A stretch of DNA of 64,000 bases from Legionella lansingensis (GTDB lineage: Bacteria; Pseudomonadota; Gammaproteobacteria; Legionellales; Legionellaceae): assembly GCF_900187355.1 (NCBI RefSeq), contig NZ_LT906451.1, forward strand, positions 868,501 to 932,500. Reading direction: 5' to 3'. A model generated the notes under the pieces. That model made no database searches, was not told the DNA's origin, and worked only from the letters and a program-made list of their open reading frames with translations. Positions 39,250-64,000 of this stretch are shown piece after piece (position 1 is the first letter of the stretch; each line of letters opens with the position of its first letter). The translations under genes and the position numbers were made by a program.

Positions 39250-39329
39250 CGAATTACCGCGGCTTGACCGCGGTATCCATGACCAGGTGCAATCATGGAC
39301 CCCATGGTCAATCAAGCCACGGGGATTCG
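39250..39329. repeat. Palindromic repeat, CCGCGG-CTTGA-CCGCGG family
   Basis: The outer arms CGAATTACCGCGGCTTGA and (reversed) CGAATCCCCGTGGCTTGA bound the 80-bp element. The left inner hairpin ACCGCGG-cttga-CCGCGGT (39256-39274) is perfect. The unit CCGCGGCTTGACCGCGGTAT recurs, with changes, inside lhr at 62609 and, shortened, at 43325. It sits between nit and tldD. Confidence 0.75.
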
Positions 39330-43166: not shown

Positions 43167-43558
43167 TTATTCACTTCCCAGGACATTGCCAAACTCTAAT
43201 ACAGAGTAATTGCACTATGATAAATTGAAATAATGGCATAAAGAATCAAGGGAAAAATTTTTATAAGTGTTTTATTTATTTTCATTTCTATAATCCTATT
43301 TAATTGCTTTGGTTTTTAGAACATCGAATTACCCGTGGTCAAGCCACGGTAATTCGGTTTTGATTTGTCAAATTAAAAACTTGCCGATCGAGGTTTTAAT
43401 ATTCAAAAACTGTGCCTATTTTTGTTGAGATGAGTTGCTTAGCATATGAACTGGCATAAGAGCTGCTAGAAAAGCTTTTAAGTGGATCCAACTGGAACCT
43501 ATCCCCTTGAATACTATTATTAAATTGATATGACTTTAAAAATTTCTAAAGGACGGCC
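43167..43558. other. 392-bp intergenic region with one palindromic repeat
   Basis: No convincing gene. It holds a hairpin at 43325-43356, CGAATTACCCGTGG-tcaag-CCACGGTAATTCG (one bulged base), followed by GTTTTGATTTG. The hairpin core CCGTGGTCAAGCCACGG matches, in inverse orientation, the CCGCGG-CTTGA-CCGCGG repeats at 39256 and 62609. It is preceded by GAACATCGAATT, as at 30301. The remaining sequence is AT-rich and should contain the promoter of the acyl-CoA ligase gene. Confidence 0.6.
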
Positions 43559-55122: not shown

Positions 55123-56025
55123 TCAAGGAGTAGGTTTTTGCGCTGCTTGCGGAAGTGTTTTTGGAACGCTGGTGCTTGCAGTAATTACACGTACAGGGAC
55201 AAAAAGAAGAGGGTCCACTAGGGTTTGATTCATTATCATCGACCAGTGCAAATGAGGTCCTGTTGCACGGCCCGTTTTGCCTACAGTGCCAATCTGATCA
55301 CCCTGTTTGACGTGATCCCCTACCTTCACATCAATCCGTTTAAGATGAGCATAGAGGGAGAAAACGCCCATGCCGTGATCGACAATCACGGTGTTCCCTG
55401 TAAAGAAATATTCCTTTGTGCTTATGACATTACCTTTGGTAATCACTCGAACGGGTGTATCTTCGGGAGCCGCGATATCTAAACCAGAATGAGGTGGACG
55501 AGGTTGATTATTAAACACGCGTTTTAAGCCAAAGAGTCCACTGATGGGTCCATGACTGGGTGCTTTAAATCCCTCTGCAAAGGGATCTGTTGGGGTAAAT
55601 TGAGCATATAAAAGCGCCATCTCTTTGTTTTCTTCGTCAATGCGTATCTTATCTTCTGTGTAAGGGTCAACTAAGCGCTGATTCCCAATGGTTAACGATT
55701 GTGTGGCGTAGAATTTATTACTGACATGAAAGGGAATGGTCATTTGGTAGGGCTTGGTCATGATGAGATTCTGAATCGACTCATTCTTATCTAAAGGGAT
55801 GCCAACGACTAATAACCATTGGTTGGGTCTAGAGCTAGGGAGAACCACAATTTTTTTATTGTCATAATAGACTTCAGGTTTTTGTTTGAGATCGATGGGG
55901 ATAATGGTCACTCCTCCGTTCACAGAGTGATTTTCAGGCAGAACATTCGCTGTAGCAATGAGACTATTTCCCCATAGAAATAACAACGACGTCATACATC
56001 CTACCCATTTCATCCAATCCTTCAT
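55123..56025 (-). CDS. Periplasmic M23 (LytM-type) zinc peptidase
   Basis: 300 residues with a signal peptide (about 1-26, cut near IATA). A beta-rich N-terminal domain (PEVYYDNKKIVVLPSSRPNQW) precedes the LytM domain (about 160-275). Zinc ligands are visible: HSGLDIAAPEDTPV (His and Asp) and GPHLHWSMI (H-x-H), with the SLYAHL His. It is therefore predicted to be an active murein endopeptidase, unlike EnvC/NlpD-type activators that have lost the ligands. It lies 5 bp after xseA. Confidence 0.9.
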   Translation of the reverse strand: MKDWMKWVGCMTSLLFLWGNSLIATANVLPENHSVNGGVTIIPIDLKQKPEVYYDNKKIVVLPSSRPNQWLLVVGIPLDKNESIQNLIMTKPYQMTIPFHVSNKFYATQSLTIGNQRLVDPYTEDKIRIDEENKEMALLYAQFTPTDPFAEGFKAPSHGPISGLFGLKRVFNNQPRPPHSGLDIAAPEDTPVRVITKGNVISTKEYFFTGNTVIVDHGMGVFSLYAHLKRIDVKVGDHVKQGDQIGTVGKTGRATGPHLHWSMIMNQTLVDPLLFVPVRVITASTSVPKTLPQAAQKPTP

Positions 56026-61834: not shown

Positions 61835-64000
61835 TTACTCAGTCAACAACACACTCTTCCCTGAGAATGCGGGTACCCGTTCTCCAGGTAAAACGATACC
61901 GAGCAGATTTAAAGGATCCACGGCTGAGATGTTAATGCTTCCTTCTGGCTGTTTGTTTTTGATGGCACGCACAGAATCTACAGCATAAGGTAAGGCAAAT
62001 TGTTCGCCCAAAAAACCACTCACAAATCGCCCACCTCTAATTTCTCCTCGATCTTCCAAGCGACGAAAAGCGATGAGCAACTCCCGCCAACTTGGGAGAA
62101 TTCTTTCTCTAGTTATCAATTCCCGAAAACACACACCGTAACGCTTGAGTAACATCCAACAAATGGCTTCAATCTGCTTGTCTTTAGCGATACATCTTTT
62201 AGTATTTAACAACGACCATCGTCCTGTCGCATGCCGGAAAATGCTCCTACTCCTTCTTCCGGTTCGACGATGCGGATCAATTAGAGAACGAAGATTATCG
62301 AAACCATCGGCTGTGATAAGTCCTGCTGCGACCAATTCCCATAAAGCTGTTTCAACTTCGCTGCGTAAGTGATTTACTCCTTGCACAATATCCACAAAAA
62401 AAGAAGCTCCTCTTTCTTTTAAATAAGAATAGATATCCTGAGCAACATGACTTAAGACGAGTTGGTTCGCGTTTTCGAGATCGAGATGAGGCATCATCCA
62501 ATCCGATTCCTCACGTACAAAAAACGTAATGGGAACGACGCTGGTAGGTAAAATGCGTTTGTGTCTCGAAAGAAGGCTATTAGTTTTTACTCGCTCACCG
62601 CCGACTTCCCGCGGCTTGATCGCGGGATCCATGGATCTGGCAAGTTCGCTGTATCCCACGGTGATCCCGGATCGAGTCCGGGAACGGGAAGTCGGCAGGT
62701 TATGTGTATTATTATTTTCTTCAGTGCTCTGAGATAGCAAAGCAGGATGTGGGGATAAGCGACCCCAGCCAACCAGTCCAGTTAAGCAAAGCCGATCAAG
62801 TAGATCAGGGTGATAATCAACAATACGTTTGGCAAAGATTTGCTTTTCCCAAGCATTAGCAGGAATTTCAAAGCCTTGTAACTGTTTAATAGTCTCTAGT
62901 AAACCATGCTCGCCGCGCAATTGTGTGCCAGGTGCTAGATGTTGCCATGTTGTCAGCCAGCGGATGAATTGCGCAGCAGTGACTGGCTCTATTTCCTTAC
63001 GAAGTTTGCCCAATGTTAGGCTATGAATTCTTGCTAAGAGACGTCTGTCGCACCATTCTTGAGATGTGCTGCTTCTAAAATGCCCACGCAATATCGCTCC
63101 TGAGGATTCTAAATTCAGCAAAGCCTGTTCGATTTCAAAGTCCCTTAAAGCCAATGTGTTTGCCAATTCGTCTTGACTAATGGGACCTAAATGTTGCATC
63201 CAGCCACGAATCATATGCACAATGGCTGTATCTCTATCAACCGGGGTTTCTTTAATATCCGGCAATTGATTTAGAGATATGCTATCTGGATAAATGGTTG
63301 TAAACGCTTGTTTCTTCTCTGTTGCAAACCAAAATTGTTTATGATCAAAAGAGGCGAGTCCCGCCCGTCTTTGATTCACTAGTTCAGTAAAAAAAGTTTG
63401 CCACTGTGGCAGAATTTTTTGTGCCTCCGTTAGATTAACCTCGATTGGCAAAGCAATGAGTGTTTGCAAAACATCGTGTAATTCATCTGCATTTCTGATA
63501 TCAGGCCATGCTTGTCGTTGGACCTCTAAAATGGCAGCAGGATCCAAGGCACCCACTTCACGAAGCACGGACTCTGGTAATACCCTACGCATTTCCACGG
63601 CTCTAGCCCGCCTTTCTTCTAGTGGAGCATCATCGAGAAAGGCATAAGGATTGGCATTTAAAATCTCGTGAGAAAAAACAGAAGGGACAGGTGTATCTAT
63701 GGCTAAATACTTTATAGTGCCATCCGTGATGCCCTGTACAAGCTTAGTCAAACCATCAATATCAAGTGCTTCCGTTAACGCATCCTTTATGGTTTCTGTG
63801 ATCAATGGATGAGCTGGAAGTTCAATATCTTGACCGGCTAAATTATCCTGACACGCCGCCGCATCCGGAAAAACAGCGGCCAGAAGATCGTCTGCAAGCA
63901 TACGAAGTATATGGGGAGGTACTTTTCTACCATGACGAAAACGTACCAATGCAAGGGATCGAGTTGCAGCCCAACGCCAACGTGTGGCAAAAAGAGGTGA
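61835..64000 (-). CDS. lhr: Lhr-type DEAD/H-box helicase, C-terminal part (cut by window edge)
   Basis: The reading frame stays open to position 64000 (upstream residues read SPLFATRWRWAATRSL), so the N-terminal helicase motor lies outside. The visible part is the Lhr C-terminal region: FRHGRKVPPHILRMLADDLLAAVFPD, a winged-helix segment (GPISQDELANTL), LDRLCLTGLVGWGRLSP, the VPITFFVREESDWM motif, and LLKRYGVCFRELITRE with WRELLIAFRRLEDRGEIRGGRFV. The TTG at 63949 is not a real start. A palindromic repeat at 62601-62695 is translated in frame, adding roughly 35 foreign residues in a linker. Large Lhr proteins act in DNA repair. Confidence 0.88.
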   Translation of the reverse strand, partial: SPLFATRWRWAATRSLALVRFRHGRKVPPHILRMLADDLLAAVFPDAAACQDNLAGQDIELPAHPLITETIKDALTEALDIDGLTKLVQGITDGTIKYLAIDTPVPSVFSHEILNANPYAFLDDAPLEERRARAVEMRRVLPESVLREVGALDPAAILEVQRQAWPDIRNADELHDVLQTLIALPIEVNLTEAQKILPQWQTFFTELVNQRRAGLASFDHKQFWFATEKKQAFTTIYPDSISLNQLPDIKETPVDRDTAIVHMIRGWMQHLGPISQDELANTLALRDFEIEQALLNLESSGAILRGHFRSSTSQEWCDRRLLARIHSLTLGKLRKEIEPVTAAQFIRWLTTWQHLAPGTQLRGEHGLLETIKQLQGFEIPANAWEKQIFAKRIVDYHPDLLDRLCLTGLVGWGRLSPHPALLSQSTEENNNTHNLPTSRSRTRSGITVGYSELARSMDPAIKPREVGGERVKTNSLLSRHKRILPTSVVPITFFVREESDWMMPHLDLENANQLVLSHVAQDIYSYLKERGASFFVDIVQGVNHLRSEVETALWELVAAGLITADGFDNLRSLIDPHRRTGRRSRSIFRHATGRWSLLNTKRCIAKDKQIEAICWMLLKRYGVCFRELITRERILPSWRELLIAFRRLEDRGEIRGGRFVSGFLGEQFALPYAVDSVRAIKNKQPEGSINISAVDPLNLLGIVLPGERVPAFSGKSVLLTE
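62601..62695. repeat. Palindromic repeat inserted in frame inside lhr
   Basis: The outer arms CCGACTTCCCG (62601-62611) and CGGGAAGTCGG (62685-62695) are perfect complements. Inside are two hairpins, CCCGCG-gcttgat-CGCGGG (62608-62626) and TCCCGG-atcgagt-CCGGGA (62665-62683). The first shares its core with the intergenic repeat at 39256. On the minus strand it is read without a stop, encoding a segment from LPTSRSRTRSG to PREVGG between the Lhr motifs. Confidence 0.8.

What the first reader, a model, noticed from the sequence alone, without database searches (positions are those of the whole stretch)
62601..62695. A dispersed palindromic repeat translated in frame within lhr
Seen: a 95-bp structure with perfect outer arms and two inner hairpins lies inside the lhr frame and is read as about 35 codons without a stop. 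Its first hairpin matches the core of the intergenic repeat at 39250-39329. It lands in a linker between LSPHPALL and the conserved VVPITFFVRE motif. Established: Rickettsia palindromic elements insert into genes and are tolerated as peptide inserts. Inference: this is the same phenomenon in a Legionella-type genome.
Basis: partly seen in the sequence, partly recalled or inferred. Interest (0 to 1): 0.75.

Follow-up and report, generated by a model that had tools for sequence, protein, structure and literature searches.

The report
Mobile palindrome translated inside Legionella helicase
A short jumping DNA palindrome has landed in frame inside a helicase gene of a Legionella-type bacterium and is read as about 45 extra amino acids, one of many such peptide-coding insertions in this bacterial family that resemble those famous from Rickettsia.

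Summary
The finding holds and is larger than stated. The lhr gene (61835-64000, minus strand) carries an in-frame insert of 43-55 residues that the 19 aligned relatives lack; the linker has 74 residues here, 11-37 in 53 of 54 spanning orthologues and 96, of unrelated sequence, in one.

The insert is a decayed copy of a ~124-bp element with a palindromic core and inverted termini GTAAYTACTCG. At least 13 copies with a recognisable end occur in this genome; 8 lie in open reading frames, 5 of these confirmed as inserts against orthologues. The ends are flanked by 8-bp target duplications (52/80 identities against 27.8 shuffled); some in related genomes are perfect. So this is a MITE; 124 + 8 = 132 nt = 44 codons, the mnmC excess in 10 of 14 orthologues.

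The peptide matches NCBI's Rickettsia RPE4 model above its cut-off in several proteins, but the lhr copy does not. It also sits in polA, mnmE, astA and other genes of other Legionellaceae.

Not shown: expression, effect on Lhr, the transposase, strain-level variation. The 39250 repeat is another subfamily sharing the hairpin.

The parts
61835..64000 (-). lhr (C-terminal 721 aa inside the window; gene runs off the window end; 1459-aa open frame in the genome)
62579..62698 (-). inserted element as read in lhr, about aa 435-474 (LPTSRSRTRSGITVGYSELARSMDPAIKPREVGGERVKTN)
   Evidence: protein alignments; limits approximate because the site is a variable linker
62587..62662 (+). stretch that matches the element consensus at positions 5-80, 93% identity
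62583..62596 (+). decayed left terminus GTTTTTACTCGCTC (consensus GTAATTACTCGCTC)
   Evidence: right terminus and target duplication not recognisable
62600..62611 (+). outer arm, left
62685..62696 (+). outer arm, right
62609..62626 (+). first inner hairpin, CGTC-REP-like
62665..62683 (+). second inner hairpin of another type (TCCCGGATCGAGTCCGGGA), in place of the usual mirror hairpin; similar in copies at genome 56015, 133699, 629884, 772315 and 1599310

Best explanation
The segment is a copy of a miniature inverted-repeat transposable element (MITE) whose palindromic core is a pair of inverted CGTC-type REP hairpins. The element (consensus about 124 bp, termini GTAAYTACTCG...) is moved by a transposase acting in trans that duplicates 8 bp of target (the duplication is shown; the enzyme is inferred and unidentified). 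Because the element is a palindrome, one frame on each strand encodes nearly the same RPE4-like peptide (PTSRGLTAGS..LA.S.DPAVKPREVG); one of these is open over the whole element and the other up to codon 39. Element plus target duplication is 132 nt, so an insertion in the right phase leaves the host protein intact with 44 extra residues; insertions that shift the frame or bring a stop are lost by selection (inferred). Coding copies are found in linkers, at protein ends and as extra stretches inside domains. In lhr the copy lies in a length-variable linker after the WH3 domain, has lost its clear right end, and is most probably a tolerated passenger peptide (inferred).
For: Insert absent from the orthologues aligned: lhr 19, hydantoinase A/B 4, mnmC 14, purQ/S 10, feoB 15 (excess lengths; mnmC exactly 44 aa in 10 of 14). 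8-bp target duplication: in 10 of 13 own copies both ends could be placed (by hand, from the termini), 52/80 identities, 0 of 20000 shuffles reach it, no signal at 4-7 or 10-12 bp; placed by script, own copies give 33/72 against 21.9, p 0.0046 (n 9), and 15 of 90 non-own core copies 61/120 against 35.5, 0 of 5000 shuffles, three perfect 8/8 (with stricter ends n 7, 31/56 against 19.0, p 0.014). A scan of 50 stretches gave 7 terminus pairs with >=7/8 at offset 0, one at +3 and none at the five other offsets. A perfect case in frame: the ctaG-like gene of G146. RPE4 model. Copies with an end are in open frames in 8 of 13, other clusters in 5 of 73 (hand-assigned; Fisher p 2.3e-5). (length+8) divisible by 3 in 5 of 5 coding and 1 of 5 intergenic copies (p 0.048).
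Against: The lhr copy itself has no recognisable right terminus or target duplication and does not hit the RPE4 model at E<=1. Two of ten own copies show no duplication (hydantoinase 3/8, SNF2 0/8) and none is perfect. Two further frames of the consensus, of another phase, are also open over the core with stops only near the ends, so stops alone do not explain why the RPE4 phase is the one used. No transposase or autonomous relative was found: no IS66 transposase in the genome; two inverted terminus pairs of 834 and 2741 bp among the hits look like chance (the first has 2/8 flank identity and lies across ordinary frames; the second starts at the end of a copy that already has its own partner). 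The termini agree with IS66 only in GTAA. The SNF2, decarboxylase and MFS copies, and those in other genomes, were not checked against orthologues. Nothing here shows transcription, translation or function, and no second strain was available.
Confidence: 0.86

Rival explanations
1. REP/REPIN-type repeat moved by a RAYT (HUH tyrosine transposase), with the peptide insert a by-product, as described for intragenic CGTC and GTAG REPs.
For: The core is an inverted pair of CGTC-like hairpins with inward CCA tails, as described in PMC3733652; core-only copies are common and rarely in open frames.
Against: Termini outside the hairpins and 8-bp duplications are not expected of RAYT chemistry (recalled). 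Presence of a RAYT gene was not tested.
Confidence: 0.1
2. A native, functional Lhr linker or domain that happens to look like the repeat, not an insertion.
For: The linker is naturally variable; one distant orthologue has 96 residues there.
Against: 93% DNA identity over 76 bp to the consensus of copies elsewhere in the genome; absent in the 19 relatives aligned; unrelated sequence in the one long linker.
Confidence: 0.01
3. The insert is removed from the RNA or protein (intron, intervening sequence or intein) and never reaches the mature protein.
For: Strong hairpin in the RNA.
Against: No Rfam family above chance (one match, 14 bits against a gathering score of 60); far too short for an intein (recalled); the frame is kept, which would not be needed if it were spliced; the guanylate kinase with an RPE insert is translated and active in Rickettsia (PMC2229807 section 9).
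Confidence: 0.04
4. The insert was selected for a function (new surface, binding or regulation), not merely tolerated.
For: Recurrence of one peptide in many proteins here and in other Legionellaceae.
Against: Host proteins are unrelated; the lhr site is a variable linker and the lhr copy has diverged past recognition by the model; recurrence follows from one long open phase in a mobile element.
Confidence: 0.06

Closest known systems
Rickettsia palindromic elements, RPE4 (NCBIfam TIGR03777)
   Same: Palindromic element translated in frame in unrelated genes; the peptide of two consensus frames scores 29.4 and 32.0 bits (cut-off 23.95); over the cut-off in 4 of 12 own and 4 of 12 other-genome loci scanned.
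   Different: In Legionellaceae, with GTAAYTAC-type termini and 8-bp target duplications; a 2007 review lists the duplication of RPEs as '?' (PMC2229807, passage). RPE DNA itself was not compared.
CGTC-tagged REPs, intragenic copies (Di Nocera 2013, PMC3733652; section 4 part 1, section 15 and passages seen)
   Same: Hairpin with CGTC side and CCA tail, dimers, in-frame copies in DNA repair and RNA-related genes of several species; the paper equates intragenic R. conorii repeats with RPE-4 and RPE-6.
   Different: Flanked by transposon-like termini here; the main text does not mention Legionella (0 occurrences).
Coxiella burnetii QMITE1 and QMITE2 (PMC5896051; abstract, section 5 part 1 and passages seen)
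   Same: MITEs in a gammaproteobacterium that the paper calls a close relative of L. pneumophila; QMITE2 has 7-11 nt direct repeats, holds a REP, and extends EnhC in frame in one strain; some QMITEs lie in frame in hypothetical proteins.
   Different: Larger (150-400 bp), GTAG REP; in the parts seen the cases in named genes are at 3' ends.
IS66-family insertion sequences
   Same: Termini begin GTAA and 8-bp duplications (PMC11946415, passage).
   Different: IS66 termini begin GTAAGCG; no IS66 transposase in this genome.
Protein-coding palindromes of Wolbachia (Ogata 2005; seen only as a reference-list entry)
   Same: Coding palindromes outside Rickettsia, by title.
   Different: Not read.

Membership tests
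MITE | short element without its own transposase, in several copies | tested here: met
   about 124 bp, with 61-77 bp variants; at least 13 copies with an end in this genome
MITE | terminal inverted repeats | tested here: met
   GTAAYTACTCG at both ends; not complete in the lhr, purQ/S and feoB copies
MITE | target-site duplication of fixed length | tested here: met
   8 bp; not recognisable in the lhr copy, absent in 2 of 10 own copies
MITE | an autonomous parent with the same termini | tested here: inconclusive
   none found by terminus patterns in 11 genomes and 50 fetched stretches; two chance-like pairs only
RPE4 | peptide matches TIGR03777 over its cut-off | tested here: met
   consensus frames and 8 of 24 loci scanned; 9 more hit below it, 7 not at all
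RPE4 (the lhr copy itself) | peptide matches TIGR03777 | tested here: not met
   no match at E<=1; hybrid and decayed copy
RPE4 | in-frame copies in unrelated genes, absent from orthologues | tested here: met
   five genes against orthologues
RPE4 | found in Rickettsia | tested here: not met
   Legionella-type genome: best-matching named relatives L. brunensis and L. jamestowniensis; hence 'RPE4-type', not a Rickettsia element
IS66-derived | GTAAGCG terminus and 8-bp duplication | tested here: not met
   8 bp met, terminus GTAAYTACTCG; no PF03050 hit in own genome
REPIN/RAYT | RAYT gene in the genome | not tested

The most novel reading that the evidence does not exclude
The RPE4-type coding palindrome is a mobile peptide domain carried by a transposon whose unit length plus 8-bp duplication (132 nt) and long stop-free reading phase have been shaped by landing in genes, and which has spread between unrelated intracellular bacteria (Rickettsiales and Legionellaceae), so that coding palindromes in general are MITEs of this type.
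Probability: 0.3. Interest if true: 0.85.

Novelty: new variant of a known kind. Interest (0 to 1): 0.62.

Why it matters
Coding palindromes are best known from Rickettsia, and in-frame REPs have been listed in other bacteria (PMC3733652); a 2024 review says in-frame MITE fusions are not unusual, that RPEs take them to an unusually high frequency, and that a similar route of protein evolution in other prokaryotes is conceivable (PMC10969869, passages). How RPEs move has been open (target duplication '?' in PMC2229807). Here the same peptide family appears in Legionellaceae with termini and an 8-bp duplication, including a perfect case in frame. That makes the insertion mechanism testable by empty-site comparison, and shows a mobile element adding the same peptide to polA, mnmC, mnmE, feoB, lhr and other genes.

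Tried and rejected
Same element as the 39250 repeat: rejected; that family (55 matches) lacks the termini, and of its 30 best copies 3 lie in an open frame of 100 aa or more (118 and 117 aa, and one 15 codons from the start of a 526-aa frame). IS66 origin: termini and transposase do not fit. Autonomous parent by terminus patterns: none convincing; the 1-mismatch hits are no more frequent than its control pattern (9 + 16 against 14 + 15), and two were a duplicated gene by sequence (tuf by recall). Relatives on plasmids: no match at 1e-5, only chance-level matches at E<=10. Rfam: nothing. A motif-based linker count was incomplete (27 of 55 loci) and was replaced by a full alignment (54 of 55). 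Literature on Legionella: the listings show no report of coding palindromes in Legionella (searches listed 20 of 81 and 20 of 109 papers); (RPE4, Rickettsia, palindromic) found 0 papers; most subscription papers are not in that library.

Full report
WHAT IS THERE. The window end holds the C-terminal 721 codons of lhr on the minus strand. Between the WH3 domain (aa 340-413) and the PITFFVRE motif lies a palindrome with perfect 12-bp outer arms (62600-62611 / 62685-62696). It folds at -54.3 kcal/mol, z -5.8, and is read through without a stop in a 1459-aa open frame.

IT IS AN INSERT. tblastn of the protein against 56 genomes, own included, gave 30 with a match; in the same-genus genomes that match, the alignment breaks at aa 416-431 and resumes at 473-481. 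I aligned 19 of the 29 orthologue loci fetched there (left out: one near-duplicate, one fragment and eight from other families); none of the 19 has the segment, the excess being 43-55 residues. Among 55 loci of other, titled genomes, 54 span the site: 53 have 11-37 residues where this protein has 74; one distant metagenome protein (L354) has 96 of unrelated sequence. The only solved relative matched, 7lhl, aligns in two blocks that end at aa 413 and start at aa 521, so the insert lies in the unaligned stretch between them. Best-matching named relatives are L. brunensis (70% in the best segment) and L. jamestowniensis (68%); the species itself is not named by any search.

THE ELEMENT. A search of the own genome with the lhr palindrome gave 64 matches, many being both strands of one palindrome (40 of 68 first-look candidates were scored, so counts of copies are lower bounds). 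Aligning 11 of the best copies showed that similarity runs beyond the palindrome to termini GTAATTACTCGCTC... and ...GAGTAGTTAC. Variants of 61-77 bp keep the termini. The core alone, an inverted pair of hairpins with CGTC-like outer sides and inward CCA tails, fits the description of CGTC REPs in PMC3733652 and is spread through the family: 56 of 143 genomes, own included, match the consensus at E<=1e-8. The lhr copy matches it at 93% over positions 5-80; its right half carries a different hairpin (TCCCGGATCGAGTCCGGGA), seen also in copies at 56015, 133699, 629884, 772315 and 1599310. The 39250 repeat belongs to another subfamily without these termini.

CODING COPIES HERE. I found 13 copies with at least one recognisable terminal arm in the own genome. 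Eight lie in open frames: lhr, a hydantoinase A/B fusion, mnmC, purQ/S, feoB, an MFS transporter, the end of an aspartate kinase/diaminopimelate decarboxylase, and an SNF2 helicase (names). Five were checked against orthologues and none of those aligned carries the insert: lhr 19, hydantoinase 4, mnmC 14, purQ/S 10, feoB 15 (from; broken, partial or distant matches were left out). The other three were not checked; in the decarboxylase the element supplies the last residues and the stop, and in the MFS protein it lies near the start. Of the 73 other repeat clusters, which lack the termini, I counted 5 in open frames (274070, 1937363, 2139549, 1234174 and 216958, the last probably upstream of the start); 2483919, a 27-base match, and 2743748, a 129-aa frame, were not counted. 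The contrast of 8 of 13 with 5 of 73 has Fisher p 2.3e-5; the classes were assigned by hand, and one of the 13 (1971308) came from the terminus search, not.

HOW IT MOVES. For 10 of the 13 copies both ends could be placed, by hand from the termini (lhr, purQ/S and feoB could not). The 8 bases on the two sides agree in 52 of 80 positions; pairing left flanks with right flanks of other copies gives 27.8, and 0 of 20000 shuffles reach 52; there is no signal at 4-7 or 10-12 bases, and a weaker one at 9, p 0.006. Two of the ten show no duplication (hydantoinase 3/8, SNF2 0/8), and none is perfect. With ends placed by a script around long cores, own copies give 33 of 72 against 21.9 (n 9, p 0.0046), and in other Legionellaceae 15 of 90 core copies have both termini with at most two mismatches each: 61 of 120 against 35.5, 0 of 5000 shuffles, with three perfect 8/8; at one and two mismatches n is 7, 31 of 56 against 19.0, p 0.014. 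Several of the 15 show no duplication and may be false ends. A scan for terminus pairs in 50 stretches fetched by a terminus pattern gave 7 pairs with at least 7/8 agreement at offset 0, one at +3 and none at -3, -2, -1, +1 or +2. The 7 are 6 places, one having been fetched twice, and two of these (in G113 and G098) have the same surroundings and so are one inherited insertion: 5 independent events, two of them perfect. The clearest example is in G146 (L383): ATGAAACAGG, a 124-bp element, GAAACAGG, and on in frame into a caa3 assembly factor of the CtaG family; it was not checked against orthologues, and a later start codon cannot be excluded. These flanks are the mark of a transposase that cuts its target with an 8-bp stagger. 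The enzyme is unknown: the genome has no IS66 transposase, IS66 termini differ, and the only inverted terminus pairs of transposon size among the own-genome hits (834 and 2741 bp) look like chance. RAYT genes were not searched for.

WHY THE FRAME IS KEPT. Of the six frames of the consensus, one is open throughout and its counterpart on the other strand up to codon 39; both give nearly the same RPE4-like peptide. Two frames of another phase (PRLDRGI) are open over the core with stops at codon 36, or 1 and 37; two have a stop within the core. The eight own coding copies are in the RPE4 phase. Element plus duplication is 132 nt. The excess of mnmC over its orthologues is exactly 44 residues in 10 of 14. 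Length plus 8 is divisible by three in 5 of 5 coding copies and 1 of 5 intergenic ones (p 0.048, small numbers). Insertion followed by loss of frame-breaking cases explains this; it is an inference.

RELATION TO RICKETTSIA. NCBIfam TIGR03777, RPE4, is hit by the two RPE4-phase frames of the consensus at 29.4 and 32.0 bits (cut-off 23.95), and not by the third frame tried. Of 12 own coding candidates scanned, 4 pass the cut-off (hydantoinase 25.2, mnmC 24.3, MFS 24.3, the frame at 1234174 24.5), 2 hit below it (decarboxylase 23.7, purQ/S 20.6) and 6 do not hit: lhr, feoB, SNF2 and the frames at 274070, 1937363 and 2139549. Of 12 candidates from other genomes, 4 pass (33.8, 29.1, 26.8, 25.9), 7 hit below the cut-off and 1 does not hit (most given as cut-outs of 80 residues). 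The DNA of Rickettsia elements was not compared, so common descent against convergence of similar hairpins is not settled.

OTHER LEGIONELLACEAE. Of 85 copies fetched from other genomes of the family (29 loci plus 56 places from its list), 16 lie in open frames by a fixed rule, 13 of them in the RPE4 phase by my reading; three in another phase may not be coding. Pfam recognises the host protein in 9 of the 12 of these scanned: arginine N-succinyltransferase, two polyketide synthases, an NRPS, MnmE, a 2-hydroxyacid dehydrogenase, a mannosyltransferase, DNA polymerase I and shikimate kinase. In DNA polymerase I the insert (aa ~292) falls between the 5'-3' exonuclease (to 263) and the 3'-5' exonuclease (from 322); in MnmE it falls inside the N-terminal domain, which spans 146 residues for 117 model positions; in the mannosyltransferase and the dehydrogenase it lies near the C-terminus. 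These were not checked against orthologues.

LITERATURE. RPE gene fusions and the translated, active guanylate kinase with an insert: PMC2229807 section 9, whose table lists the target duplication of RPE as '?' (passage). Intragenic REPs: PMC3733652, passages, section 4 part 1 and section 15. Coxiella MITEs: PMC5896051, abstract, section 5 part 1 and passages. Review: PMC10969869, passages. IS66: PMC11946415, passages. Rickettsia phylogenomics: PMC2635572, passages. The listings show no report for Legionella.

VERDICT. What the insert does to Lhr, if anything, is unknown; a tolerated passenger is the most likely answer.

Noticed in passing
genome 46166, 274070, 1357786, 1937363 (L246-L249): A second subfamily with other ends (TTGACAATTGCTC.../...GAAATGTCAATA) and peptide PTCRGLSTASMDPANKSRDVG; two of four copies lie in open frames (a FabA-like protein and the C-terminus of a GNAT protein). 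Ends and duplications not analysed.
   Followed up: partly
window 62665-62683 and genome 56015, 133699, 629884, 772315, 1599310: A separate small hairpin (TCCCGGATCGAGTCCGGGA) sits nested in the loop or arm of several repeat copies, as if one palindrome had replaced or entered another.
   Followed up: no
window 39250-39329 and 43332-43349: 39250 is one of a few dozen copies of a related palindrome subfamily, nearly all outside long open frames; 43332 is a weaker match to the hairpin.
   Followed up: partly
genome 2139530-2139660 (L255): A longer-stem variant (CCCCCACGATTTATTCGC arms, also partly in the feoB copy) at the start of a PD-(D/E)XK nuclease frame; whether it is translated depends on the start codon.
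   Followed up: partly
L479 3001-3148 (genome G146): A copy with 7/8 target duplication whose left arm contains a CCTCA tandem repeat expansion.
   Followed up: no
L444 1439-1512 and L477 3001-3074 (genomes G113 and G098): One and the same insertion with its target duplication is shared by two species, so some insertions predate their split.
   Followed up: partly
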